In this document: one piece after another, positions 20,827 through 52,316 of the stretch | Layout: every line of letters begins with the position of its first letter | Position numbering within the stretch: the first letter of the stretch is position 1 | DNA from: a virus | Direction: 5' to 3' (one strand) | DNA: 64,000 nucleotides | IMG/VR virus record: IMGVR_UViG_3300037110_000161 | Coordinates: 1 to 64,000 of that record | Position numbers and translations under genes: made by a program | The notes under the pieces: generated by a model | What the model saw: the letters and a program-made list of their open reading frames with translations, nothing else | What the model was told of the DNA's origin: nothing | Database searches by the model: none

Positions 20827-21396
20827 CTACGAAACTCGCGACAACCTCACCGCCTGGTCGTCGCGCAGGAAAGGCCTCAAGAGCGACCATGCCAGCGGAT
20901 TCGGCACGAGGTTGATAAGGTGTTCGATCGGCACCATGTTCCGCTCGTAGTGCGTGCGAACCTCGGCGTAGCCTTGGGCCGTGACGGAAAGGTTCTCCAA
21001 CTCCATCTGCGGGTCTACGCCGTCCAGCAGACTGTAGGCCAATTCGTACTCGGCCCGGCGGATGGCCTCGGGCACAATCGTGTCCGCGCCGCGGGGGAAC
21101 TCCAGCTCTTGGCTGGCATCCGCCGCACGCTCATCTTGCCGATATTGCTCCGCCTTCTCCCGATCGAATGTGCCATTGGTAGGATCACGCCAAGGTGGCA
21201 GCGTTTGTTGGCGAAAAAGCCAGACCGAATGCTTTTCCCCTTTGAAGGCCAAGTTGTCGATCAACCGCCGGGCCGCCAACAAAGCCTTTGGCCAATCCGC
21301 GTCGTCGGCGTCATTCCAGGCTTGCGAGTGCAGCCGGCCGGCAAAGTAGTCTTCCGCTTCACCAAGGTCGCCGTAATACGTTGCGTCAATCGCCAT
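20827..21396 (-). CDS. Head-tail connector/adaptor, DnaT_2-like (189 aa)
   Basis: The opening MAIDATYYGDLGEAEDYFAG with DADWPKALLAARRLIDNL matches a phage family usually labelled as putative DnaT-like. From its constant place beside capsid genes I take it to be a head-tail adaptor. The later PEAIRRAEYELAYSLLDGVD helix pair also resembles connector proteins. Its start overlaps the end of the glycosyltransferase gene by 11 nt. Confidence 0.78.
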   Translation of the reverse strand: MAIDATYYGDLGEAEDYFAGRLHSQAWNDADDADWPKALLAARRLIDNLAFKGEKHSVWLFRQQTLPPWRDPTNGTFDREKAEQYRQDERAADASQELEFPRGADTIVPEAIRRAEYELAYSLLDGVDPQMELENLSVTAQGYAEVRTHYERNMVPIEHLINLVPNPLAWSLLRPFLRDDQAVRLSRVS

Positions 21397-22555
21397 GTGA
21401 TACCTGCTTCAGCCAGTCAAGCTGCGTTCGCTCTCGCTCCACGTACCAGCCGCCTTTCCAGAGGTCGGAAAGCATCTGGAAATACTCTTGGTAGCGCCAA
21501 CGCACGCGATCCAGGCTGTAGTTGGCCACAGACCGCCGATGAACATCGCTCCGGTCCAAGCGTGGCGCGTGACGCGCCGCAAAAAGGAAGTGGTCCAGCG
21601 TTCGACAGCGAAACCCGGTCCTGCCGTGCTCCACGGTCTCGGGAAACGCGCCCCAATCAGTCGTGATGGCCGGCGTGCCCGTCATTTGGGACTCAATCGC
21701 TACCGCGCCGAAGGGCTCGATATACGTGGTGGGGACAAAAGTGGCGATCGCGCCGCCGTAAAGCTCCGCCCGCTTCGCACCGGTGGCGAAGCCGACGTAC
21801 TCCAAGTTGTCGCCTTCGTAGACCTCGCCGTCCGCACAATGGATACGGTTGCCCTCGACCTTGACGCATCCCTGCCCGGCGATCTTCAGCTTGGCTCCCA
21901 GCCGCGTGCAGGTCTCGACGGCAATGTGGATGCCCTTCCGCTTGATGAGGCGGCCGAGGTAGAGATAGTAGCCGCCCCGGCCGCCGTCCGGCTGGAAGGG
22001 GTAGTCGGCCGGGTTCAAATAGTTGGGGATCACCACGTCGTAGAATTTGCCCTCCGGGTCGTAGCCGCCCTCCGCCCCCCAAATCTTGTGCATGTGGCTG
22101 TAAGACTCGAACACGCGGTACTTGGCGAAGGTGCCGTTGTAGCCGATGCCGTACTCTACCACCATCACGTCCGTACCCACGGCGTTGGCCAGAGGGATGT
22201 TAATGGTGCCCATGATAAGGCACACGAAGTCGCCCGGCCGCTTGCGCTTGTTGATCTCGGCCGCAGCCCGCTCATTGGTCAACTGCCAGTAGGGTGCCCG
22301 GCCGCTCCAATCAACCTCGTAGAGGGCATCGGGATTATACCTGCCAAAGAACCCCTCCTGCTCGGCCTTGGAGAGGATAGTCACGTCTTCGACGCAGCAA
22401 TCGGCGACTTCGCTCCCCTCCACGCCGTAGTGGAAGACCTCGTGGCCGAGGGATGCCATCATCTGGCAGAAGTGCAAGACCTTCATCGTGAAGGCGCAGG
22501 CCGAATGACTCATGTTCGTCTGCGTATGCGGCAAGGCAACCACGTGGAATCGCAT
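21386..22555 (-). CDS. Family 1/GT4-type glycosyltransferase (389 aa)
   Basis: This is a GT-B enzyme transferring sugar from a nucleotide donor. The N-terminal half has MRFHVVALPHTQTN and FCQMMASLGHEVFHYG. The C-terminal nucleotide-binding half has YYLYLGRLIKRKGIHIAVET, the glycine-rich LKIAGQG and the E-x7-E signature EPFGAVAIE. It lies inside the virion operon between two collagen-like fibre genes and the connector gene. This suggests that it modifies virion proteins, the Thr-rich collagen-like fibres being the obvious substrate, rather than host surface sugars. The substrate is inferred. Confidence 0.9.
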   Translation of the reverse strand: MRFHVVALPHTQTNMSHSACAFTMKVLHFCQMMASLGHEVFHYGVEGSEVADCCVEDVTILSKAEQEGFFGRYNPDALYEVDWSGRAPYWQLTNERAAAEINKRKRPGDFVCLIMGTINIPLANAVGTDVMVVEYGIGYNGTFAKYRVFESYSHMHKIWGAEGGYDPEGKFYDVVIPNYLNPADYPFQPDGGRGGYYLYLGRLIKRKGIHIAVETCTRLGAKLKIAGQGCVKVEGNRIHCADGEVYEGDNLEYVGFATGAKRAELYGGAIATFVPTTYIEPFGAVAIESQMTGTPAITTDWGAFPETVEHGRTGFRCRTLDHFLFAARHAPRLDRSDVHRRSVANYSLDRVRWRYQEYFQMLSDLWKGGWYVERERTQLDWLKQVSHGD

Positions 22556-35100: not shown

Positions 35101-36429
35101 CTAATCGCCGCCACCTTCAAGCATGGCAGCGTCGAACTCCTCGTCAAATTCGGCTCGTGCAGCATCAACCATCGGCTTGATCTGCGCCCTGATCTCTTCG
35201 GAGGATTCGCTCTGATACACTTCGTCGAGAAGATCTGATCGCCCCTCGAGTTCTGCACACGCGCCAGCATAGTGCGTATCATCGTAAGCTCCTAGGATCG
35301 CCTCAACCCACACCTTGCGCCCTTCGGCTGGCGTCGACAAGTAGTCTTTCACGGCTTCTCCCGTGCTCATCAAATAGAACATCCGCCGCAGCCGTGGGTC
35401 GGACACAACCTGGTCCGTGTGGTTTTCTCGCATGAGGCGACGGAGAGTCTCTTCACCGTAAAGTTCTAGGACTGCCTGAACGAATCGTCGCTGCCGAGGG
35501 CTATCCGAACCGAGGTCGCTTCCCAACTTCCGAAAGATGCCATTGCGTTCAAGCCACGACCACGCGTCGCGGCGGCGGTAATTGCTCAAGCACTCGATTA
35601 CCACATCGAGACTCGGTCGGCTTTCGGGCTCCTTTGCGAGCATTCGCCGCACAACGTTGCCGAGGTATCTCCGCTCAGGCGACCAGCCGGAATCCTCGAT
35701 CTCTATGGGTTGGTTTCGGACGGCCATCACCAGCCGAGAATAGAGACCAATATCGGAAAAAATCGGCTGCCCGGTAAGAAGCTGATAGCCTATTGTGCCC
35801 AACGAATAGACATCCGAAGAAGTGCTGCATTCCTCCCGGAACAGCCATTCGGGCGCTGCGAACCGAAGAGTTCCCAAGAAACTCTGTGAATTGGTAACGG
35901 TCGCTTCGCTCTGAAGTCGCACGACGCCCAGGTCGAGCAACACCGCTTGGCCGCCACTGTCGCGCATTACGTTCGCGGATTTCACATCTCTATGGAGAAT
36001 ACCGTGATCGTGCAGCGCTTTCAGTCCATTGGCGGTTCCGAGGAGCAGATTCCGAGCCAAATCCGTGGGCACAGGTCCACGGCTGGTCAGGCTTTCCAGA
36101 GTCTCGCCTGTAATAAGGCTCATCACCACGTACCGCGGCAAGCCATCCTTCCAGAAGGCGGCTGTATCGTGGACCTTCACGAGGTTCGGGTGTGCCAGGT
36201 AACTGCCGACCATCGACTCTCTAATTCGCCGCGCGATTATTATCCGCGCCTCTTCGCGTTCGAAAATCGCGGGGGCGTACCATTTCAAGCAGAATCGTTC
36301 ACCTGCTCGGAACGATGTCCACGGAACACTGAGCTGAACCTCGAAGACCGTCCCGGTGGCTCCGCTGCCGAGCTTCCGTTCTATCTTGAAAAGGCCGTCG
36401 ATTATCTCGCCAATTGCAGGGAGTCCCAT
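35101..36429 (-). CDS. Eukaryotic-like Ser/Thr protein kinase (442 aa)
   Basis: Complete kinase domain at about residues 10-285: glycine loop LGSGATGTVFE, lysine in FCLKWY (K49), catalytic loop LHRDVKSANV (D148), metal site LLDLG (D166, DLG instead of DFG) and FAAPEWL with SSDVYSLG. Residues 290-442 are a helical, acidic C-terminal domain with no membrane segment, so the kinase is cytoplasmic, unlike the usual membrane-bound Hanks kinases. It is the last gene of the six-gene cargo operon, 37 nt after ThyX. Kinases of this kind occur as sensors or effectors in phage defence; here that is inferred. Confidence 0.93.
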   Translation of the reverse strand: MGLPAIGEIIDGLFKIERKLGSGATGTVFEVQLSVPWTSFRAGERFCLKWYAPAIFEREEARIIIARRIRESMVGSYLAHPNLVKVHDTAAFWKDGLPRYVVMSLITGETLESLTSRGPVPTDLARNLLLGTANGLKALHDHGILHRDVKSANVMRDSGGQAVLLDLGVVRLQSEATVTNSQSFLGTLRFAAPEWLFREECSTSSDVYSLGTIGYQLLTGQPIFSDIGLYSRLVMAVRNQPIEIEDSGWSPERRYLGNVVRRMLAKEPESRPSLDVVIECLSNYRRRDAWSWLERNGIFRKLGSDLGSDSPRQRRFVQAVLELYGEETLRRLMRENHTDQVVSDPRLRRMFYLMSTGEAVKDYLSTPAEGRKVWVEAILGAYDDTHYAGACAELEGRSDLLDEVYQSESSEEIRAQIKPMVDAARAEFDEEFDAAMLEGGGD

Positions 36430-36466
36430 GGTTGTTTCTAACTTCGGCTGTGGGGCGAAGGTGCCG

Positions 36467-37399
36467 TCAGCGCGTTTCGCGCCACGGCACCTCTAAGCCT
36501 ATTACGCTCAGCTTCTCCTCCAACTCATCGCGCTCCCTGCTCCGCCGAAAGCCTTGCTCCTCCCGCACGAGCAATCCTTCCTCTTCGGCCCGCCGCACGG
36601 CCATCGCGATATCGCCACTATGCAGTGCGCGGATGATTTCCAATTCCAGGCGGGAGAATGAAACTGCTTGCAACTGAAAATCCAGGAATGCTTGCCAGGT
36701 GAGGGGGCACCATTTGCTGACGATCGTTTGCCCAATGATATTCGTGTAGCTGCGAATTTCCTGCTGCGCGTGTGCGTCCATGCGGAGCAGGAGAAAATGC
36801 AACAGGTTGTGCAGATCGATCTTCCAGTACGCCTCCGTGTACGTCGCTAGAGGTAAATCCTTTCTCGCCTGCTCCCTTGCAATGCCCAGTCGAAGGCGCT
36901 CTTCGTAGACGTCACGTGCCAGTACCTGTACAGCCTTCTCGCGATCGGAGAGATGTGCCCCGACTTCCGCATCGACGGTACCGCTACTCCCTTGCTGGTT
37001 CGTCTGGGACTGCTTCCGCCATTCTCCTGGGGTCGTCCGTTGCGCCGCGTCGATTGCCACCGAGTACCGTGTCGAGTACTCGTTCACATTCGCCGTCCTG
37101 TGCCGAATCCACTGTCGCCACGTATCCATCGGGACGCGCACATGCAGCTTGATTTCGCACATCTCGAAGGGCGTCGTATGGCGATGCCGCAGTAAGTAGC
37201 GTATCAGCCCCTGGTCTTCCCGTACTTTCTTGGTTCCCGTGCCGTACGAGACGCGCGCCGCCTGCACGATGGATTCGTCCGATCCCATGTAGTCGATGAC
37301 GCGCACGAAGCCATCATCGAGGACTTTGAACGGCACACCGAGGATCTCATCCAACGCCTCCACCCGCGGCCGGCTCAACTTCTCCCATTCTTTTTCCAT
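36467..37399 (-). CDS. thyX: Flavin-dependent thymidylate synthase ThyX (310 aa)
   Basis: ThyX methylates dUMP to dTMP using methylene-tetrahydrofolate and FAD. The signature RHRTANVNEYSTRY is present, together with LLRHRHTTPFEMCEIKLHVR and the C-terminal VSKWCPLTWQAFLDF. A Ser/Ala/Gln-rich insertion of about 60 residues follows the signature. The protein looks complete and active. It sits between the glycosylase-methyltransferase fusion and the kinase (20 and 37 nt gaps), so it is part of the cargo operon rather than a stand-alone nucleotide gene. It could supply dTMP to the phage or act on another pyrimidine; the context makes the second worth testing. Confidence 0.95.
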   Translation of the reverse strand: MEKEWEKLSRPRVEALDEILGVPFKVLDDGFVRVIDYMGSDESIVQAARVSYGTGTKKVREDQGLIRYLLRHRHTTPFEMCEIKLHVRVPMDTWRQWIRHRTANVNEYSTRYSVAIDAAQRTTPGEWRKQSQTNQQGSSGTVDAEVGAHLSDREKAVQVLARDVYEERLRLGIAREQARKDLPLATYTEAYWKIDLHNLLHFLLLRMDAHAQQEIRSYTNIIGQTIVSKWCPLTWQAFLDFQLQAVSFSRLELEIIRALHSGDIAMAVRRAEEEGLLVREEQGFRRSRERDELEEKLSVIGLEVPWRETR

Positions 37400-37419
37400 G
37401 GTTCTTCGACTCCTCCCAA

Positions 37420-39213
37420 CTATTGCTGCCTATCGGCACGGAGGATCGCCCGCGCCACCGCAGCCGCAAGGAGCGGCGGCACCGCGTCCGCCACCTGCTG
37501 CTGCTGGAAACCGATCGATCCCAAGAACTCGTACGAGTCCGGGAATGACTGCAATCTCGCCGCTTCCCGGACTGACAGACCGCGGCTCTGCGTCGGGTGA
37601 ATCAGCATGTTCTTCCGGAAGTTCCCGATCACCTTCGATGGCTCATTTCGCTTCAGGCGGAAGTAAATGCCCGTGTGGCAACGGGTGTAGTCCTTGTAGT
37701 TCCTCAGCAGCTTGTGCGGTATCGCCTCCCAGTTCTGTCCTGGCTTGATGCATTTGTACCGTTGGAGAACGTAGTCCGCGTTGCACGTCACGAGGTTCCC
37801 CTGCACGACGCCGTTCGTTTTCGATCGCATCATCACCTGGTACGCGGACAGCGTAGCGTCCGCTCTATACGGCAGGACATCGGTCTCATCTCCATTCCGC
37901 AGGAGCGGCAGATCCCCGATCGCCGCCCAGACGGACACGAGCGGTTGTTTCTCCGGCCCGTGCGTCGCTTCGAGAAACGGGATGGAGATTCCCAGGCGAT
38001 TCCCGATGACGAACACTCGTCGGCGCACCTGCGGGACGCCGAACTCTGCCGAATTCAATTCGCGACACTCCGCCTTGTAGCCGAAATCCTTGGCACCCCC
38101 GATGATCGCTTGCAGTACTTCGCCGCCGCCGAGCGTGCGAAGGCCGGCCACATTCTCCAAGACGAACCAAGCCGGTCGCATTACGTCCACGACATCCAAG
38201 AACTGTTGGTACAGATGATTGCGGGGATTATCGAGCGTCCGCGTCCGCCGGTTCGATTCAGAAAAGCCTTGACAAGGCGGCCCGCCGATGATCGCCGTCA
38301 GGTCGCCCGGTCGCAGCGCGAGCTTCCGCATGATCGCCTTTGGATCGACAGTCCGAATATCTTCTTGGACCACATCCGTGTTTCGGTGATTGTGCCGGTA
38401 GGTCGTCGCGACGCGCAGATCCTCCTCGACGGCCTGCACGATTGAGAACCCCGCTTCTTGGAACCCGACACTCATGCCACCCGCCCCCGCGAACAGATCG
38501 ACCGCAAGTGGCTTCGGCCGAACGGCGACCGGCAACGGTTTTTCCGCACGGCCGTGTGAACAGGAGCGCCGGAGACAGCACCCATCACACTGGGGCTCGA
38601 TCGCATGGCAGCGCGCGCGTCCATGTGCGACCGCGGCCACGTGGAATCCATGGCGAGACTCCGCAGGCACGGCATCCTGCAATGCCGCGTGCGCCGCGTC
38701 GTACGACAGGCGACGCGACACGAATCCCAACCGGACGCCCAAGCGAAAGGTGTGGATGTCTACCGGAAGCACCGGCATGTCGAAGCAGTATAGGAGCACG
38801 CAGCGTGCCGCCTTCTTGCCTACGCCCGGTAGCGCCACGAGCGCACGCTCGGCCTCGTCAGGCTCCATCCCTTTTAGCCAGGAGAGCGTCAGCTTGCCGT
38901 GGCGTGCCACGATGCTTCGCAGCATGTCGCGGATCAGTTTCGCCCGGCGTTGTCCCATACCGGCACAGGCGATAGTCTTACGGATCTCGGCCAATGTCGC
39001 CGTCCGTACCGCATTCCATGTTCCGAAACTCGCCTTCAGGTTCGCGTACGCCTTACGGTATTTCTTCTCATCAGTCTTCTCCGAGAGGAGGATGAAGACC
39101 AGCTCGTCGAGGGCATTCCGTTTGTTCCCCAGCTTCGGCAAGCCGTACTCTTGCAGCAGAAGCGCCGTCAGGCGCTTCACGCGATTCACATTCCGAGTCT
39201 TGGCCGTCTTCAT
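37420..39213 (-). CDS. Endonuclease III (HhH-GPD)-C5 cytosine DNA methyltransferase fusion (597 aa)
   Basis: ATG 39213 overlaps the upstream stop (ATGA). Residues about 1-220 are an endonuclease III-type DNA glycosylase: LPGVGKKAARC with K134 and VDIH with D152, 18 apart as in E. coli Nth (K120, D138). Cysteines 202, 209, 212 and 218 have the C-x6-C-x2-C-x5-C spacing of the Nth iron-sulphur loop. Residues 235-597 are a complete C5-methyltransferase: LAVDLFAGAGG (motif I), GGPPCQGFS (C314), ENVAG (motif VI), QVRRRVFVIG (VIII) and a final motif X. Known precedent: Mig.MthI, an Nth-family G:T glycosylase encoded beside a C5 methyltransferase. Here both are one chain. Confidence 0.95.
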   Translation of the reverse strand: MKTAKTRNVNRVKRLTALLLQEYGLPKLGNKRNALDELVFILLSEKTDEKKYRKAYANLKASFGTWNAVRTATLAEIRKTIACAGMGQRRAKLIRDMLRSIVARHGKLTLSWLKGMEPDEAERALVALPGVGKKAARCVLLYCFDMPVLPVDIHTFRLGVRLGFVSRRLSYDAAHAALQDAVPAESRHGFHVAAVAHGRARCHAIEPQCDGCCLRRSCSHGRAEKPLPVAVRPKPLAVDLFAGAGGMSVGFQEAGFSIVQAVEEDLRVATTYRHNHRNTDVVQEDIRTVDPKAIMRKLALRPGDLTAIIGGPPCQGFSESNRRTRTLDNPRNHLYQQFLDVVDVMRPAWFVLENVAGLRTLGGGEVLQAIIGGAKDFGYKAECRELNSAEFGVPQVRRRVFVIGNRLGISIPFLEATHGPEKQPLVSVWAAIGDLPLLRNGDETDVLPYRADATLSAYQVMMRSKTNGVVQGNLVTCNADYVLQRYKCIKPGQNWEAIPHKLLRNYKDYTRCHTGIYFRLKRNEPSKVIGNFRKNMLIHPTQSRGLSVREAARLQSFPDSYEFLGSIGFQQQQVADAVPPLLAAAVARAILRADRQQ

Positions 39214-40193
39214 GGAGGCAGCCCGTCGATGAACAGTGTATCGGCTCCCGACGAGTAGTCCCGCACGTTGTATTCGCCGGGCACACAGTACGTGACCTGT
39301 ATCTGCGGAAACTCCTCCACGAGCAGCAGCACCGCAAGCGTGGACAGCTTGGTGCTCATGGGAGCCAGTACGACGTTGCTCTCTCGCAGGCACGGCTCCA
39401 CCAGGCACCGCAACTGCGTATAACATTCGTGGATGTCGGCAGTTGCGAAACGGAACTCCTCCACGTCCTGACGGGACAACACCAACTCCTGCTCCGCGAT
39501 ATTGCGAGCCAGGAACCGTTCGGTCGTCGGCGGATCGCCGATGCCCATGAGCACCTTCTTCGGCTCATGCTCATCAATGACCTTCAAGACACGATCAGGC
39601 TCGAACCCAGCGAGGACAGCCAAGACCGTCGGCTGACTCGGGTCTTGGACACCCGAGAACCCAACGACGTTCCGGACGCTACGGAATCCTCGACTCAGCC
39701 ACGATCCATGGTCGGCCGGAGACACGTAGACTGCGCGCACCGTGGGCTTGGGCTCGAACGATCGGAGGAGGGCGGAGGCGATGAGAAGCGATTCCCTATT
39801 AAACGTCGTCGTGTCGATCGTCACCGTGGGTTGCTGATCCTGCGGCTGCCAGTCCGTCAGTAACGCCTTCCGTAGCGTCTCCAGTTGCTTCGGTGCGTCG
39901 AACAGCGAACCCTCCACGACATCCACCCGATCCGCGTGTCGCGCGAGAATTGTAATCAACTGGTACAAGTGCGGCCGTGTACCCACACCCTGGCAGCCTT
40001 CGAGGCACTCGCTGTTGGCGTAAATGATCGCCTGGCGAGCCCGGTATGTCGGCGGCAGGCACTCCGCGGCTTTCACGCTCCGCGGCTCGAAACTCGCGCA
40101 CGCGAGGAACAGATCGTCAGGCTTGCCAACAATTGCCGGCTGAAGCACCTGATCCCGAATCGCTTGGGCAATCGTACATCGGAAGGGACTCAT
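39210..40193 (-). CDS. Unknown protein of cargo operon, alpha/beta (327 aa)
   Basis: The ATG at 40193 overlaps the ATPase stop and its own stop overlaps the next start (both ATGA), so it is tightly coupled. Alternating hydrophobic strands and helices (DLFLACASFEPRSVKAAECL; QPTVTIDTTTFNRESLLIAS; NVVLAPMSTKLSTLAVLLLV; QVTYCVPGEYNVRDYSSGAD) suggest a Rossmann-like fold with repeated strand-end motifs, including VTIDTTTFN and VLAPMSTK. No enzyme motif is certain. This may be the least characterised core component of the system. Confidence 0.88.
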   Translation of the reverse strand: MSPFRCTIAQAIRDQVLQPAIVGKPDDLFLACASFEPRSVKAAECLPPTYRARQAIIYANSECLEGCQGVGTRPHLYQLITILARHADRVDVVEGSLFDAPKQLETLRKALLTDWQPQDQQPTVTIDTTTFNRESLLIASALLRSFEPKPTVRAVYVSPADHGSWLSRGFRSVRNVVGFSGVQDPSQPTVLAVLAGFEPDRVLKVIDEHEPKKVLMGIGDPPTTERFLARNIAEQELVLSRQDVEEFRFATADIHECYTQLRCLVEPCLRESNVVLAPMSTKLSTLAVLLLVEEFPQIQVTYCVPGEYNVRDYSSGADTLFIDGLPP

Positions 40194-42019
40194 TCCTTCT
40201 CCTCCCCAGGGTCGCTCGGGAATAGTGGTCTGTTCTCGTCGTCCTCCACCACGCCGAGACGCATCCGGACGAACCGAGGAGGATCGCTGCAAGCAAGCTC
40301 CAAATGGTCGGAGCTCAATTGGATACGTCCTTCAAAGCCCGTTGGATCGAGCTTGAAGACCGGGCACAGGCGACGATTCAAGATGTACCAGGGCTGGCGT
40401 CCACCGCCTTCTTTCGTGCTGTAGGTGCGACGTTGGAAGTACCGATGTTGCACGCCGAGTCGCAGGATTTCCTCCAGGTTCGACGAGAGCGACTCGCGCA
40501 CAGTGAAGGAGAACACGCGAGCCTCGCGCGCCGATGGATCATGCAGCCGTTCGTAGAAGAGACGCCCCAGGGACTCGATCAACGTGCGCAACGCGTCCAA
40601 TTGGCTCCAATTCTCCGGCGGAAGATCCTTCCGGATATCCTGGAGCTTCACGTCCAGGAACTCTTCCGAGTACCGGTAGCAGACTTCATCCTGCACGCTC
40701 GGCGGTACTGCGCGCAGTTCACCCAGCTTCGCCCCTTTCTTCACGCATGCGTCCACCATGAGATAGCATGGTTCCAGGAAGTCCCGCACGATGCCCGACG
40801 AAAGATGCACCAGGTTCTGGAATCCAGCATAGCTCTTGCGCTGCTTCTTTCGTTTCAGTTCCTGAAACAGCCGCGCCGTCGCGTAGCGCGTGACGTAGTC
40901 GCCCTGCCTCCCCGGCTCTCCCGCCTTGTGCCACTCCTCTGCCGTCTCTTTCTTGATGTCGTCGAAGCGCTGCCGTTCCGTGTCATTCACCGGGAGGAAC
41001 TGGTCGATGTTCTTCTCCGGGAGCGGGGACAACGTCAGGCGGCGCTCGGCGATGAGTCGTACTTTGTTGGCGTAGTCGGACTTCGATTGGGTGTACAACT
41101 CCTCCACGTTGACTTCCGAGTAGTCATGCGGTTGCTCAATCAGGCCGCCCCGTAGCGTCAGGAGCGTGTCGTACTTCTCCCGTTGTGCCGAGACTTTCAC
41201 GCAAAGCCATTGGTTATCTCGGTTCGCGACCCAACTGTTGACGATCCTCTGTTGCACTCGGTTTAGGCGGTCCGCATCATCGAGGAGCACATACACGGAC
41301 GCACCACGGATCACCGGAAGGTCGCCTACCAACTGCATGAACGGCAACAGGAAATCATGGTAGCCGCTGGTCGCCCCCTCGTACTGCGTCTCGCCGCGGC
41401 CGAGGCACCGCCAGCGCAAGAATCCTCCGATCTTCAGATTCTCCAGGCTGAACAATCGGTGCAGCCAGCCCAGCGGATCAACGGCAATGTCGTTCGATTC
41501 CGTCGCTCCTCGCCCCGATGCGGCAATCGATGCCGGCTCGAAGAGCATGATCACCTTCTTCGCGAACGCCGTCAGCTCACATACGCCGATCACGCCGGCC
41601 GCGAACTGATCGCGCAAACACACAATCAGCCGATCCGCAATGGTGATGTTCAGGAGGTGCTCGCTCAAGATCGCCGTCGCCGACTCATCGAGCGTCTCGA
41701 ATTCCGTCTTGTTCAACTGCCCTTCCTTGCAGGGGCAGTACACGCCGAGGAATGGTTCGGACGTGCTGAAGACCTTCTCGATCCCGCCATGCACGATGCC
41801 CTGGCACTGTGGCTCCAAGTACCGCAGCATCATGCTCTTGCCGGAGCCTCTCGACCCCCAAATGAACGTGTGCCGACGCTGGCGGACCGTTTCGATCTGC
41901 GTGTACTGCTCGATGAAAAGGCCGACGAGTTGCTCCGGGGGCAACTTCTCCGGGCTCTCGACCACGAAAGGGTTACCGGGTAACAGGCCGGGAGTCGCAA
42001 GTGTATTCATATCGGTCAT
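40190..42019 (-). CDS. P-loop ATPase, ORC/KAP-like (609 aa)
   Basis: ATG 42019 overlaps the stop of the HD gene (ATGA). Walker A is WGSRGSGKSMML (residues 54-65) and Walker B is VYVLLDDADRL (242-252). The start NPFVVESPEKLPPEQLVGLF and the layout resemble ORC/Cdc6- or KAP-like ATPases found in several defence systems. The C-terminal half (about 330-609) is helical and basic, with a likely winged-helix segment (LSSNLEEILRLGVQHRYFQR) that could bind DNA or partners. Probably the energy-dependent sensor or motor of the operon. Confidence 0.92.
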   Translation of the reverse strand: MTDMNTLATPGLLPGNPFVVESPEKLPPEQLVGLFIEQYTQIETVRQRRHTFIWGSRGSGKSMMLRYLEPQCQGIVHGGIEKVFSTSEPFLGVYCPCKEGQLNKTEFETLDESATAILSEHLLNITIADRLIVCLRDQFAAGVIGVCELTAFAKKVIMLFEPASIAASGRGATESNDIAVDPLGWLHRLFSLENLKIGGFLRWRCLGRGETQYEGATSGYHDFLLPFMQLVGDLPVIRGASVYVLLDDADRLNRVQQRIVNSWVANRDNQWLCVKVSAQREKYDTLLTLRGGLIEQPHDYSEVNVEELYTQSKSDYANKVRLIAERRLTLSPLPEKNIDQFLPVNDTERQRFDDIKKETAEEWHKAGEPGRQGDYVTRYATARLFQELKRKKQRKSYAGFQNLVHLSSGIVRDFLEPCYLMVDACVKKGAKLGELRAVPPSVQDEVCYRYSEEFLDVKLQDIRKDLPPENWSQLDALRTLIESLGRLFYERLHDPSAREARVFSFTVRESLSSNLEEILRLGVQHRYFQRRTYSTKEGGGRQPWYILNRRLCPVFKLDPTGFEGRIQLSSDHLELACSDPPRFVRMRLGVVEDDENRPLFPSDPGEEKE

Positions 42020-43038
42020 GGCTTCAGCGCCTCGGCAAGGGTCTCCGGACGCCACTGCGGGTGGCGCTCGAAGAACGGTTGGAACAGTCCGACGCCCGGA
42101 TATGACGTGTGGTCCAGGCCGCAATCGCCGATGGGCAGCGTCAGGGTGTCATAGCCGCCGTGGCGTTCGGCTCCTCGGACGAGCGTCAGCCGGGCCTCGA
42201 TCTCCCGGATAGATGCGTATCTCGCCAGGCTCGTGCCACAGTAAATCCGTTCGTTATTCATTTTCTCCAGTCGGCACAGGACGTACTCCAGCACGGAGAT
42301 TTTTCCCTCACCATCGCAGCGCCCGTGGAAGTCTCTGCAGGGGCACCGACGCAGAATCGCATCCGTGTCGAGTTCGATCGTCACGACGATTCTCTCACGC
42401 TCCGGTTCCGGCCGGGCGCTCACGACCGCCCTGGCGTACTGCCAGTAGATCTGTTGGCCTTCCGGTACGTCGGGAAGCAGTGCAAGACTAATGCGTGAAC
42501 GGTTCTCGGACACCTCATCGGCGAACTTCAAGACGGCGGCGAGTGTTCGGGGATACACCTGGTACGTGACGGAGCCCATCGCGCAATCTTCGTCGGGTTT
42601 CGGGACGCTCAACCCCCTGTCGCCCGCATGCGCACGGACGATCTCGTTGACGAGGCGCTGTGTCGTAGGGCATGGGAAGCCAAGCGTGCGGATGCTCTCC
42701 ATCAACTTGAGCACCCGATCGGCATGATTCGAACGACCATAGACCATGCCCACGTCGTGCCAGATGATGGCGGCGAGCATGAGGAACAAATCCATCGTCG
42801 TGAGATCCGATTTGCTCTTCAACCGCGGTGCGAGCAGGTAGCCGGCAGTCTGGATGACCGACTGGATGTGCGGCTTGCCATGATCCGTGTAGTACGGGCA
42901 TGCGGTTTGCACCCACTCGTAGTACTCGGTTTCCAAGTACTGTCGCATCGTCTCGTACCGATGCCACAGATTCTCAGCGTTCGCGTCTTTCGCAGCGCGT
43001 CGCTCAAGTTCCCGCTCAAGGCTCGGCGTGTCTTTCAT
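42016..43038 (-). CDS. HD-domain metal-dependent phosphohydrolase (340 aa)
   Basis: First gene of the cargo operon. ATG 43038 chosen; a GTG two codons earlier is possible. Metal ligands of an HD domain are visible: H57 (TDHGKPHIQSV), H94-D95 (IIWHDVGMVYGR), an AHAGDRG helix and the Asp of LKFADEVSENR. A Cys cluster (CPCRDFHGRCDGEG) and a beta-rich C-terminal domain follow. The TDHG...H...HD pattern resembles HD-CE and related defence-linked HD proteins. It could hydrolyse a nucleotide signal or act on nucleic acid; the substrate is unknown. Confidence 0.92.
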   Translation of the reverse strand: MKDTPSLERELERRAAKDANAENLWHRYETMRQYLETEYYEWVQTACPYYTDHGKPHIQSVIQTAGYLLAPRLKSKSDLTTMDLFLMLAAIIWHDVGMVYGRSNHADRVLKLMESIRTLGFPCPTTQRLVNEIVRAHAGDRGLSVPKPDEDCAMGSVTYQVYPRTLAAVLKFADEVSENRSRISLALLPDVPEGQQIYWQYARAVVSARPEPERERIVVTIELDTDAILRRCPCRDFHGRCDGEGKISVLEYVLCRLEKMNNERIYCGTSLARYASIREIEARLTLVRGAERHGGYDTLTLPIGDCGLDHTSYPGVGLFQPFFERHPQWRPETLAEALKP

Positions 43039-43123
43039 GCTCACTCGCCCACGTTTGCAACGTTGAGAGCATCACCGGCGCTCGGAAATAACCCGACAGA
43101 GGCAAACGGATACACTGTTTAGA

Positions 43124-48779: not shown

Positions 48780-49529
48780 TCAATGTGCCGGCAAAGCACC
48801 TTCCAGGGTGCGAAAGCGATTGATCCTACCCAAACACTCGGATGCGTGACGCTGGAACAGTCGCCATACAGCCGGTTTGGTGTAAGCCTTGCCATCGCGG
48901 GTGAAGTGGCCGTTTTCGTTGAGCCACTGGGCGATCTCGTCCAGCGTGCGTCCGTCGGCCCGCAGTTCCTTTATCGTCGGGACCAGGTGGGCGTACTTCC
49001 TGTCGGTTTCGGCGCGACGTTTCGCGGCCGACCGCTGCGTCGCCTTCCTGAACCCTCGCAGGTGCTCGCGGCCCTGCCACGCACCCTCGCGGGCCGAGCC
49101 CAGCTTGACGCCACGGGCCCTGGCGGCGGCCAGGGCCTTTCTCGTCCGCTCGCCGATAAGTCGCGCCTCCTCTTGGGCCACGGCAGCCAAGATGTGTAGC
49201 GTCAGGGTGTTGGCCCCCTTGCAATCGCAGCATACGAAGTCCACCTTCGACTCCATCAAGGCTGCCGTGAAGGCGACGTTGCGGGCAAGCCGATCCAGTT
49301 TGGCGACCACCAGCGTGGCGTTGGAGAGCTTCGCATGGGCGAGGGCCTTCGCCAGCTCCGGTCGATCGGGGGTCGTTCCTGTCTCGATTTCGGTGTAGTG
49401 GGCGATCTCGCTGCCACCCGACTCAGCAATCAGCTTCAAGACATCCATTTGTTGGGCCTCAAGACCCAAGCCCGACCTGCCCTGACGCTTGGTGCTGACG
49501 CGGTAGTACGGAATGAAGCGTGCGGTCAT
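48780..49529 (-). CDS. Serine recombinase/resolvase (249 aa)
   Basis: The catalytic domain begins FIPYYRVSTKRQGRSGLGLE with the Ser nucleophile and the usual Tyr-x-Arg-Val-Ser. KLDRLARNVAFTAALMES carries the conserved Arg pair, and EEARLIGERTRKALAAARAR the E-helix. The C-terminal part (LDEIAQWLNENGHFTRDGKA) is a helix-turn-helix of the type found in small recombinases of mobile elements. It is paralogous to the gene at 51099. It may resolve dimers or invert DNA; a structured inverted repeat lies upstream (49982-50048). Confidence 0.92.
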   Translation of the reverse strand: MTARFIPYYRVSTKRQGRSGLGLEAQQMDVLKLIAESGGSEIAHYTEIETGTTPDRPELAKALAHAKLSNATLVVAKLDRLARNVAFTAALMESKVDFVCCDCKGANTLTLHILAAVAQEEARLIGERTRKALAAARARGVKLGSAREGAWQGREHLRGFRKATQRSAAKRRAETDRKYAHLVPTIKELRADGRTLDEIAQWLNENGHFTRDGKAYTKPAVWRLFQRHASECLGRINRFRTLEGALPAH

Positions 49530-50113
49530 CGTGGTGTGTCCTTCTAGTATTATCATACCACGAAATGGCTGAATGTCAAATCGCCAAACGAGATTTTCGG
49601 AGTGGCGGGGACGGCTTTTCAGCAAGGCGCGACATCCACGAACGTCGAGATGGCATTCCGGGGCGCCATCCCACGCCTCACGATCCAAGCGGGGGCACCC
49701 AGCGAGGAACACCAGCGCGGTGGCCCAACCTATCGTCATGCGGAGCTGGGTGCGCGAGGCTTGTGCGGCCCGGTGAACGTTTTCCTACCGGAGGGCCAAT
49801 CCAGTCGCTGCTCGGCTCTCCGTTTCCGGACCGATGCTCGCCGCAACCCTTGTGGCCCTTGTGCCGGGGTTTGCACCGGGGGGTGGGATGAGGTAGGATT
49901 GAATCGACAATTTGAAATTGACGCGCAAGCGTCGAGTCACTGCTTCCCAACGAACGACCAACCTGGGCTTCCGAGCCCTTGAACGTGAAGGCAGTGCTTG
50001 ACCGCGCTTCCCCGAAAGGGGGAGCGTCGGCCGGCACTGTTTCACGTTGCCCCTTGGTCGGGGCGTTGGGAGCAGTCTGGTTTGACGCTCCCCTGTCTTT
50101 TTTCGGGGCCTGC
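49530..50113. other. Non-coding gap upstream of serine recombinase
   Basis: No frame here has convincing coding character. The stretch contains an A/T-rich patch just before the recombinase and the large inverted repeat listed separately; a resolution or crossover site would be expected here. Confidence 0.5.
49982..50048. repeat. Structured inverted repeat (possible res/crossover site or RNA)
   Basis: AACGTGAAGGCAGTGC (49982-49997) pairs with GCACTGTTTCACGTT (50034-50048) with one bulge or mismatch. Inside lies a second imperfect pair, GCTTCCCC and GGGGGAGC. The nested form could be a recombinase site or a folded RNA. Confidence 0.5.
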
Positions 50114-50708: not shown

Positions 50709-51102
50709 TCGCCAAGGCCGTGAACACGGCGTTGGACTCTTCGCAGCCAGCCAGGGCGCGCTTCCACTCGTTGACCATGTATCGGGTCACGCCCCAGAAG
50801 TGTGCTACGGCCACCTCGTCTTCTTCTGCCACGGCGCGGACCAGGCCGGCGAACAGAATCGGCATGAGGCCCTTGTGCCGGCCACGCTTGCAGTGGAAGC
50901 CCGGCCAGGGAATCGGCGCCTCAGTCATGCCTTCCACCGTGACATCCCCGTAATACTCGTCGTGGACCGTCGAACCGACCTTGACGCTCGGCGGCATGTA
51001 CGGGCCGGCACGGAACGGATACCCGTTGGCCAGCGGATATTCGACGGCCGTCGGCTGCTCGCCGCTGTCGCGGGGCTTCGCCCTTTGTTTTGCAGCCGTC
51101 AC
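50656..51102 (-). CDS. Conserved mobile-element protein with HTH-like C-terminus (148 aa)
   Basis: GTG at 51102 overlaps the recombinase stop (GTGA) and follows GGAGAAG. The central part has VGSTVHDEYYGDVTVEGMTE and PWPGFHCKRGRHKGLMPILF; the C-terminal part (VAHFWGVTRYMVNEWKRALA) looks like a helix-turn-helix that contacts DNA. Coupling to a serine recombinase suggests an accessory or regulatory role. Confidence 0.78.
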   Translation of the reverse strand: MTAAKQRAKPRDSGEQPTAVEYPLANGYPFRAGPYMPPSVKVGSTVHDEYYGDVTVEGMTEAPIPWPGFHCKRGRHKGLMPILFAGLVRAVAEEDEVAVAHFWGVTRYMVNEWKRALAGCEESNAVFTALAIKRADPAFRWKYGYPQV

Positions 51103-51833
51103 GCCGTCTTCTCCATGCACGGGATGATTTGCGGCTTGCCGCCGCGATCCTTGACTTTGCCCAGAAAACCGTCACCGAGGTAGCGTTTCAGCAACCGCCA
51201 CACCGACACCTGATTGAATGGATGGCCAGCCGTAGTCGTATGCCCATTGTTGTTCAACCATTCGGCGATCTCGTCCATCGTCTTGCCGGCTTCCCGCATT
51301 TCCTTCAAGGTCGGCATGATGAAGCGGTAAGTCTCTTCGGTGCGCTGCCGCCGCAACTTTGCCGACTGGGCGATCGCTTTCTTCGTCCCCCGCAAGTGCT
51401 CCCGACCTTCCCAATGGCCAGGCCGTGCCGACCCCAGCTTGATTCCCTTCCTCTTGACGGCCTCGGCCAGGGTCCGCTTCGTCCGCTCGCTGATCCGCCG
51501 CGACTCCTCCTCGGCCGAGGCGACCAGGATGTGGACCGTGAACTTGTTGCACTGCTCGTTATCGAGACACGCGAAGTCCACGCGACTCTCAAGCAAGATC
51601 GCGAGAAACCTGGCGTTTCGCCCAAGGCGGCCGAGTTTCGCGATGACCAGGACCGCCTCGTCGCGGCGGCACTGCTCAAGGGCTTCCACCAATCGGGGCC
51701 ACTGCCGCTTTCCTTCCACGAATTCGGCGATCAACGCGCCGTTGTTGAACTTGACGAACTCCGCCACAGCCGAGCGGTCGGTCTGCCGATAGTGGTAAGA
51801 GACATACTTGACTTTTGTCGTATGGATATTCAT
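51099..51833 (-). CDS. Serine recombinase paralogue lacking the catalytic serine (244 aa)
   Basis: ATG 51833. The fold and C-terminal helix-turn-helix (MDEIAEWLNNNGHTTTAGHP) closely follow the gene at 48780, with shared blocks such as KLGSARPGHWEGREHLRG. At the active site the usual YRVST is YRQTD, so the Ser is replaced by Thr, and LDRLARN is LGRLGRN. The reaction centre is therefore altered and the enzyme may be inactive in strand exchange, acting as DNA-binding partner or regulator. Coupled by GTGA to the next gene. Confidence 0.88.
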   Translation of the reverse strand: MNIHTTKVKYVSYHYRQTDRSAVAEFVKFNNGALIAEFVEGKRQWPRLVEALEQCRRDEAVLVIAKLGRLGRNARFLAILLESRVDFACLDNEQCNKFTVHILVASAEEESRRISERTKRTLAEAVKRKGIKLGSARPGHWEGREHLRGTKKAIAQSAKLRRQRTEETYRFIMPTLKEMREAGKTMDEIAEWLNNNGHTTTAGHPFNQVSVWRLLKRYLGDGFLGKVKDRGGKPQIIPCMEKTA

Positions 51834-51896
51834 AATCAACCCCGCTTTATTTCTGGCCTGTAGCGCAAGCTTACACCACCTCCAAGGGAAAGTCAA

Positions 51897-52316
51897 ATGG
51901 ACGCAAATGTGGTCACGCCGATGCTGACGCTTTTCCGTTCCGACGAACCTTCCTATCAACCGCTTCATCCCTCAAAATCGCTTCAACCCGAAGACGGCGA
52001 TCCGCAGGCGTCGCTGGAAAACTTGAAGCAGCTCGGACTGGTGATTCAGGAGATCTGGGCGCGGAAGGGACTCTCCCGAATCTTGATCCAGTTCGCCACG
52101 GGCGAACAATACGTTGCGCTCGGCTTGCGGAACCCGGCGGCTTTGGCTTTTCTCGCCTCGAACGCCGGCTTCGGCGACTACCACGAACTGGAATCGTTCT
52201 ACGCCCGCCTGCCGGCCGACTATGACGGCAAGCTGCCCGCCGTGACGGATCGCCACGGCATGCTGCCGCCGAAAGAGTACGACGACGCAATCCCCGCACC
52301 CGCAGGCGACCGGTAA
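51897..52316 (+). CDS. Unknown protein (139 aa)
   Basis: Divergent from the recombinase gene with a 63-nt gap. ATG at 51897 follows AAGGGAAAG. The middle part looks folded (LKQLGLVIQEIWARKGLSRI, then EQYVALGLRNPAALAFLASN). The ends are low complexity. Not recognised. Confidence 0.65.
   Translation: MDANVVTPMLTLFRSDEPSYQPLHPSKSLQPEDGDPQASLENLKQLGLVIQEIWARKGLSRILIQFATGEQYVALGLRNPAALAFLASNAGFGDYHELESFYARLPADYDGKLPAVTDRHGMLPPKEYDDAIPAPAGDR

What the first reader, a model, noticed from the sequence alone, without database searches (positions are those of the whole stretch)
37420..39213. Single-chain endonuclease III-type glycosylase fused to a C5 cytosine methyltransferase
Both halves keep every key residue: K134 and D152 with the Nth spacing of 18, four Cys in exact Nth iron-sulphur spacing (202, 209, 212, 218), and methyltransferase motifs I, IV (C314), VI, VIII and X. 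Nth-family G:T glycosylases encoded next to C5 methyltransferases are known (Mig.MthI), giving repair of deaminated 5-methylcytosine. A physical fusion inside a defence-like operon suggests coupling of marking with repair, or a glycosylase that attacks DNA with the wrong modification.
Basis: partly seen in the sequence, partly recalled or inferred. Interest (0 to 1): 0.85.

Follow-up and report, generated by a model that had tools for sequence, protein, structure and literature searches.

The report
Fused DNA-methylating and mismatch-repair enzyme
A phage, and separately a planctomycete bacterium, carry one protein that joins a DNA-cytosine-methylating enzyme to an endonuclease III-type repair enzyme, most likely so that the enzyme making mutation-prone 5-methylcytosine also starts repair when that base decays to thymine; known bacteria and archaea do this with two separate proteins.

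Summary
One 597-codon ORF (37420-39213, minus strand) encodes an intact EndoIII/Nth-type HhH-GPD domain (K134, D152, four Cys in Nth spacing) fused to an intact C5-cytosine methyltransferase. It is not an assembly artefact. A second viral contig has the identical protein, and a Planctomycetota chromosome encodes a full-length 57% identical fusion in the same operon.

The operon is HD-CE / ORC-CDC6-like ATPase / CARF6 / C5-MTase, often with ThyX. I found the four-gene core in 21 loci from bacteria, an archaeon, plasmids and viruses; only two carry the fusion. Others carry Vsr, the classical T:G-mismatch nickase, beside or near the same genes, so the glycosylase looks like a substitute for Vsr.

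The glycosylase belongs to a supported clade whose other sampled members also sit in C5-MTase operons (one in DISARM). The planctomycete fusion has Tyr where this one has Lys, as in the T:G glycosylase Mig.MthI. Two further fusions exist: another virus, and one in reverse order.

Best explanation: a single-chain 'mark and repair' enzyme that starts excision of thymine arising from 5mC deamination. Substrate is inferred, not shown. The 'weapon' reading is not excluded but has no support. It is a new variant of the known Vsr/Mig coupling.

The parts
37420..39213 (-). Nth-type HhH-GPD glycosylase :: C5-cytosine methyltransferase fusion, 597 aa (P0001)
   Evidence: Open frame; Pfam HhH-GPD and DNA_methylase; identical copy L002; 57% identical full-length fusion L045
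38548..39213 (-). Glycosylase half (residues 1-222); K134 codon at 38812-38814, D152 codon at 38758-38760
   Evidence: HMMER to EndoIII structures; alignment A4; AF2 model pLDDT 88.4 and fold search
38560..38610 (-). [4Fe-4S] cluster loop C-X6-C-X2-C-X5-C (C202, C209, C212, C218)
   Evidence: Residues checked; all four invariant in alignment A4 with Nth and Mig
37438..38505 (-). C5-MTase half (residues 237-592), catalytic Cys314 at 38272-38274
   Evidence: Pfam DNA_methylase 200.9 bits; motifs; fold matches to DNMT1/MET1, 3g7u, M.HaeIII
39210..40193 (-). CARF6-like sensor; its stop overlaps the fusion's start (ATGA)
   Evidence: PADLOC CARF6 model, 227 bits; junction sequence
40190..42019 (-). 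ORC-CDC6-like AAA+ ATPase (Walker A GSRGSGKS, Walker B DDAD)
   Evidence: Pfam PF24389, 306 bits; conservation over 16 cassettes
42016..43044 (-). HD-CE metal-dependent phosphohydrolase; H55, H59, H96-D97, H107, H139, D176 invariant in 16 of 16 cassettes
   Evidence: Pfam PF24391, 63.6 bits; conservation
36467..37399 (-). ThyX (FAD-dependent thymidylate synthase), the gene after the fusion; found in 7 of 21 cassettes
   Evidence: Pfam Thy1, 168.3 bits
35101..36429 (-). Ser/Thr protein kinase, 37 bp after ThyX; possible extra member, not seen in the other cassettes
   Evidence: Pfam Pkinase; PADLOC PD-T4-6-type models

Best explanation
The gene encodes a single-chain 'mark and repair' enzyme. 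The C-terminal half methylates cytosine at C5 in the target sequence of a CARF6/ORC-CDC6/HD-CE defence cassette, labelling self DNA. The 5-methylcytosine it makes deaminates to thymine, giving T:G mismatches that ordinary uracil repair cannot see. The N-terminal EndoIII-type domain excises that thymine (probably also U from U:G), with D152 activating the attack and K134 giving an optional AP-lyase step, so that host base-excision repair restores C:G. Fusion keeps repair where methylation happens and guarantees that MTase and repair enzyme are inherited together. Shown here: both domains intact and conserved, the fusion conserved in a virus and a bacterial chromosome, Vsr beside or near sister cassettes, and a glycosylase clade tied to C5-MTase operons. 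Inferred: MTase target, T:G substrate, in-cis action, and the defence role of the cassette.
For: Fusion conserved in a Planctomycetota chromosome with the same operon order, both halves under purifying selection. The closest viral cassette (L003, 47-65% identity gene by gene) has an unfused MTase and a vsr gene ending 14 bp before HD-CE. L007 (vsr next to thyX) and L175 (vsr between two C5 MTases just upstream) also carry Vsr. The glycosylase falls in a supported clade (95/90, 97/88) whose other three members are stand-alone genes in C5-MTase operons, one overlapping the MTase in a DISARM operon; no C5-MTase was detected beside the 20 other planctomycete Nth homologues fetched for comparison, nor beside L049. 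The orthologue L045 has Tyr at the Lys position (LPGIGKY), as Mig.MthI does (LPGVGKY); D152 and all four Cys are invariant. ROS1, an EndoIII-type enzyme solved on T:G DNA, is among the nearest relatives. Mig.MthI reduces damage from 5mC deamination, with U/G = T/G as best substrates (PMC2714593); Vsr starts repair of T:G left by 5mC deamination (PMC12907096).
Against: No activity can be read from sequence. The domain is closer to EndoIII-1/Nth than to Mig.MthI (102 against 32.7 bits). The Mig specificity residues are not conserved: by the alignment, the Mig A50 position is a Glu that is invariant in this clade. Tyr126 matters for T:G activity in Mig (PMC2714593), and this copy has Lys. Most cassettes (16 of 21) show neither a fused glycosylase nor a nearby vsr, so repair is not required for the system. 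In L007 the vsr may belong to a neighbouring second MTase operon.
Confidence: 0.62

Rival explanations
1. General EndoIII activity: the domain repairs oxidised pyrimidines (thymine glycol, 5-hydroxycytosine, oxidised 5mC) near methylation sites, with no special role for T:G mismatches.
For: Closest solved relatives are Deinococcus EndoIII-1 and EndoIII-3, and the Nth catalytic Lys and Asp are both kept.
Against: The clade is tied to C5-MTase operons. The orthologous fusion L045 lacks the Lys that an EndoIII AP lyase needs. Vsr, a T:G enzyme, sits beside or near sister cassettes.
Confidence: 0.17
2. Weapon: the glycosylase excises 5mC or another modified base from incoming or competitor DNA, making abasic sites, so that the fusion is part of restriction (like glycosylase-based defence, or ROS1/DME-type 5mC excision).
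For: ROS1, solved on 5mC DNA, is among the nearest relatives. The cassette has no obvious classical restriction nuclease.
Against: 19 of 21 cassettes have no such domain, so it is not the core effector. A 5mC glycosylase fused to its own C5 MTase would destroy its own product. Loss of the Lys in L045 removes the lyase step.
Confidence: 0.12
3. Non-catalytic: the HhH-GPD domain mainly serves as a DNA-binding or base-flipping accessory for the MTase.
For: Haloarchaeal DISARM-linked MTases L005 and L006 have a degenerate N-terminal HhH region lacking the Lys and most of the cluster cysteines; L046 has Thr at the Lys position.
Against: In the window protein D152, K134 and all four cluster Cys are kept, D and Cys also in L045, L046 and L074; the model is a confident EndoIII fold.
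Confidence: 0.09

Closest known systems
Mig.MthI (T:G mismatch glycosylase of Methanothermobacter, PDB 1kea)
   Same: HhH-GPD fold with [4Fe-4S] cluster, acts with a C5-MTase against 5mC deamination; the orthologous fusion L045 shares its Tyr at the catalytic Lys position
   Different: Mig is a separate protein, only about 21% identical to the window domain; the window copy has Lys; here the glycosylase is covalently joined to the MTase
Vsr endonuclease / very short patch repair
   Same: T:G repair enzyme linked to a C5-MTase gene; occurs beside or near sister cassettes (L003, L007, L175)
   Different: Unrelated fold (PD-(D/E)XK nickase), not fused; nicks beside the T instead of excising the base
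Deinococcus radiodurans EndoIII-1 (4unf, 8a5c) and E. coli Nth
   Same: Best sequence and fold matches; K, D and four Cys conserved
   Different: Housekeeping stand-alone enzymes; the window domain lies in a separate MTase-linked clade with an invariant Glu (E49) and Tyr (Y52)
Arabidopsis ROS1 (7yho, 7yhp, 7yhq)
   Same: EndoIII-type bifunctional glycosylase active on T:G and 5mC
   Different: Plant demethylase with other domains; not fused to a MTase
DISARM (DrmA, DrmB, DrmMII) and Mza systems
   Same: C5-MTase-based defence operons in which a stand-alone glycosylase gene overlaps the MTase gene (L050 DISARM, L176 Mza)
   Different: The window cassette lacks DrmA/DrmB and MzaB/MzaC; its partners are HD-CE, ORC-CDC6-like, CARF6 and ThyX

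Membership tests
EndoIII/Nth-type HhH-GPD glycosylase | HhH-GPD fold | tested here: met
   Pfam above cut-off; AF2 model pTM 0.83, TM 0.75-0.82 to EndoIII structures
EndoIII/Nth-type HhH-GPD glycosylase | Catalytic Asp and Lys 18 residues apart | tested here: met
   K134 and D152; Lys not conserved in the orthologue L045, which has Tyr
EndoIII/Nth-type HhH-GPD glycosylase | C-X6-C-X2-C-X5-C iron-sulphur loop | tested here: met
   C202, C209, C212, C218
EndoIII/Nth-type HhH-GPD glycosylase | Excision of oxidised pyrimidines with AP-lyase activity | not testable with these tools
   Needs an enzyme assay
Mig.MthI T:G glycosylase | Orthology to Mig.MthI | tested here: not met
   32.7 bits to 1kea against 102 to EndoIII-1; not grouped with Mig in trees (Mig is a long branch)
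Mig.MthI T:G glycosylase | Tyr at the catalytic Lys position | tested here: not met
   K134 in the window; Tyr in the orthologous fusion L045
Mig.MthI T:G glycosylase | Linked to a C5-MTase | tested here: met
   Fused in one chain
Mig.MthI T:G glycosylase | T:G and U:G excision | not testable with these tools
   Needs an enzyme assay
C5-cytosine DNA methyltransferase | Motifs I, IV (catalytic Cys), VI, VIII, X | tested here: met
   motif X is ADAVPP, a variant shared by its nearest relatives
C5-cytosine DNA methyltransferase | Known target sequence | not testable with these tools
   Needs bisulphite, EM-seq or nanopore data
DISARM | DrmA helicase and DrmB beside the C5 MTase | tested here: not met
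   Operon partners are HD-CE, ORC-CDC6-like, CARF6 and ThyX
Glycosylase-based anti-phage defence | Glycosylase is the core effector that restricts phage DNA | tested here: not met
   19 of 21 cassettes lack the glycosylase; tested by genomic distribution only

The most novel reading that the evidence does not exclude
The fused glycosylase is an active part of immunity: within an undescribed HD-CE/ORC-CDC6/CARF6/C5-MTase/ThyX defence system, the MTase half marks self while the glycosylase half strips thymine or modified pyrimidines from DNA with the wrong mark, and ThyX protects or rebalances the host thymidylate pool.
Probability: 0.1. Interest if true: 0.85.

Novelty: new variant of a known kind. 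Interest (0 to 1): 0.52.

Why it matters
C5 methylation is mutagenic because 5mC decays to T. Bacteria and archaea are known to answer with a separate repair gene beside the MTase (Vsr, Mig). A covalent MTase-glycosylase, found here in at least two forms (N-terminal and C-terminal glycosylase), makes it possible to test whether repair in cis at the methylated site is more effective, and whether fusion prevents the harm that an unpartnered T:G repair enzyme can cause once its MTase is lost (reported for Caulobacter VsrA, PMC12907096). It also points to a clade of MTase-linked EndoIII enzymes in planctomycetes, and to a widespread cassette (HD-CE, ORC-CDC6-like, CARF6, C5-MTase, often ThyX) for which I found no description in the held literature and no PADLOC model beyond CARF6.

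Tried and rejected
Assembly or frameshift artefact: rejected. Degenerate pocket: rejected for this copy. Mig orthologue: rejected by sequence and tree. Haloarchaeal plasmid MTases L005 and L006, found by tblastn over 90% of the query, looked like the same fusion, but their N-terminal domain is degenerate and Pfam does not see it. INPHARED phages and PLSDB plasmids gave no other intact fusion. Glycosylase as core effector: rejected by distribution over 21 cassettes. A Vsr found in the genome of L016 is not near its cassette. Literature: no paper found for HD-CE with ORC-CDC6, for CARF6, or for an endonuclease III/C5-MTase fusion; the NAR 2020 CARF classification is not held. L059, L065 and L070, which joined the MTase-linked group weakly in one tree, have no MTase nearby; L059 is a degenerate Nth-like protein.

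Full report
What is there. The window is part of a 73,270-base viral record with terminase, portal, major head and tape-measure genes and two serine recombinases of the resolvase/integrase type, one checked against Pfam and PHROGs. On the minus strand, the 597-codon ORF 37420-39213 is open throughout and carries HhH-GPD (residues 42-183) and DNA_methylase (238-591) above Pfam cut-offs. The start codon overlaps the previous gene's stop (ATGA), so the fusion start at 39213 is the likely one although the frame is open to 39426.

Not an artefact. The identical protein is on a second IMG/VR contig, which may be the same viral population. More decisively, a scan of 392 Planctomycetota genomes found one chromosome (G148, L045) with a full-length relative: 598 aa, 57% identity, glycosylase half 47%, MTase half 63%. 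Third codon positions diverge far more than first and second in both halves, which is purifying selection.

The operon. HD-CE (42016-43044), ORC-CDC6-like ATPase (40190-42019), CARF6 (39210-40193), fusion, ThyX (36467-37399) and perhaps a protein kinase (35101-36429). The same HD-CE/ORC/CARF6/C5-MTase set occurs in 21 loci examined here: Planctomycetota, Pseudomonadota, Armatimonadota, Bacillota, Bathyarchaeota, alphaproteobacterial and Spirosoma plasmids, and viral contigs. HD metal-ligand residues are invariant in the 16 aligned cassettes, so HD-CE is probably an active phosphohydrolase. ThyX accompanies 7 of 21. Only the window and L045 carry the glycosylase. Literature searches and PADLOC gave no description of the whole set; this is absence in the sources held, not proof of novelty.

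Module exchange. Between the window and L045, MTase and ThyX are 62-63% identical, but HD-CE, ORC and CARF6 only 25-28%. In trees the two fused MTases are sisters (91/78), while for ORC, HD-CE and CARF6 the window groups with L003 and L010 and L045 is remote (L045 is a long branch). The modification half and the sensor/effector half therefore seem to be exchanged separately.

Vsr as the functional counterpart. L003, a virus with the same gene order (47-65% identity gene by gene), has an unfused MTase and a vsr gene on the same strand ending 14 bp before HD-CE. L007 has vsr beside thyX, possibly belonging to a second MTase operon. L175 has vsr between two C5 MTases upstream of its HD-CE/ORC/CARF6. 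In total 5 of 21 cassettes have a fused glycosylase or a nearby vsr, and none has both.

Glycosylase clade. In a tree of 31 EndoIII-type domains, the window and L045 domains group with three stand-alone glycosylases (95/90; 97/88 with more rows). All three lie in operons with C5 MTases: L050, overlapping the MTase in a DISARM operon with DrmA and DrmB; L047, with two C5 MTases and a PD-(D/E)XK protein; and L048, with a SNF2 helicase. None of the 20 fetched comparison homologues from planctomycetes, nor L049, has a C5 MTase detected nearby. The search ranked hits by similarity to the glycosylase without regard to MTases, but the sample is small. Two further fusions lie near this clade: L074, a virus, same domain order, with K, D and four Cys intact; and L046, reverse order, MTase first, with Thr at the Lys position. 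Haloarchaeal DISARM-linked MTases have a degenerate version. In an Armatimonadota-phylum genome a more Mig-like, Tyr-bearing glycosylase gene overlaps a C5 MTase in a Mza operon. Scans of 150 more genomes of G148's order and about 900 genomes of other phyla at stricter cut-offs found no other full-length match.

Active site. D152 and the four Cys are invariant; the Lys is K in the window, Y in L045 and T in L046. Since the orthologous fusion lacks the lyase Lys, AP-lyase activity cannot be essential, which fits a Mig-like monofunctional excision better than a ROS1- or Nth-type bifunctional one. By sequence the domain is nearest Deinococcus EndoIII-1, then EndoIII-3, ROS1 and Nth, with Mig.MthI weak; fold search agrees in the order of the top matches. 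The Mig sequence I used was recalled from memory and verified as identical to 1kea. The A50 position of Mig, important for its T preference (PMC2714593), is an invariant Glu in this clade, so the substrate cannot be read from the sequence.

Mechanism. Shown: intact fusion, conservation, clade association, Vsr in sister cassettes. Inferred: the MTase marks self DNA for the cassette; deaminated 5mC gives T:G; the fused domain excises T; host repair completes. Fusion would also ensure that the repair enzyme is never inherited without its MTase, which matters because an unpartnered Vsr harms Caulobacter (PMC12907096).

Verdict. Observation confirmed. The repair reading is the best supported (0.62). 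The attack reading is possible but unsupported (0.12). It is a new variant of the known C5-MTase plus T:G-repair pairing, conserved as one chain and set in a cassette that deserves study in its own right.

Noticed in passing
window 35101-43044 and loci L003, L007, L010-L017, L020, L022-L024, L045, L143, L175, L177-L179: A recurrent operon of HD-CE, ORC-CDC6-like ATPase, CARF6 and C5-MTase, possibly an undescribed defence system; no description of the set found in the held literature or PADLOC.
   Followed up: partly
window 36467-37399; L003, L007, L010, L015, L022, L045: ThyX accompanies the cassette in 7 of 21 loci, including an unrelated-looking ThyX in a Lachnospiraceae MAG (L015). No explanation for a thymidylate synthase beside a C5-MTase.
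   Followed up: partly
L045:13044-19470 against window 36467-43044: MTase and ThyX are 62-63% identical while HD-CE, ORC and CARF6 of the same two operons are 25-28%: the halves appear to be exchanged as modules.
   Followed up: yes
L046:7234-9312 (-): Reverse-order fusion, C5-MTase followed by an HhH-GPD domain with Thr in place of the catalytic Lys, in a planctomycete.
   Followed up: partly
L074:9692-11950 (+): Another viral HhH-GPD::C5-MTase fusion (752 aa) with intact K, D and four Cys and a different MTase type.
   Followed up: partly
L176:8296-9084 (-): Mig-like glycosylase (Tyr at the Lys position) overlapping a C5-MTase gene in a Mza-type operon.
   Followed up: partly
L175:496-10919 (-): Long defence locus: C5-MTase with a 330-residue unknown N-terminal domain, Vsr, second C5-MTase, three unknown genes, then HD-CE, ORC and CARF6.
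   Followed up: no
window 35101-36429 (-): Ser/Thr protein kinase matching PADLOC PD-T4-6-type defence kinases, 37 bp after ThyX.
   Followed up: no
window 48780-49739 and 51099-51968 (-): Two related serine recombinases, suggesting a temperate phage.
   Followed up: no
window 21386-22555 (-): Phage-type glycosyltransferase (phrog_3408) between the structural genes.
   Followed up: no
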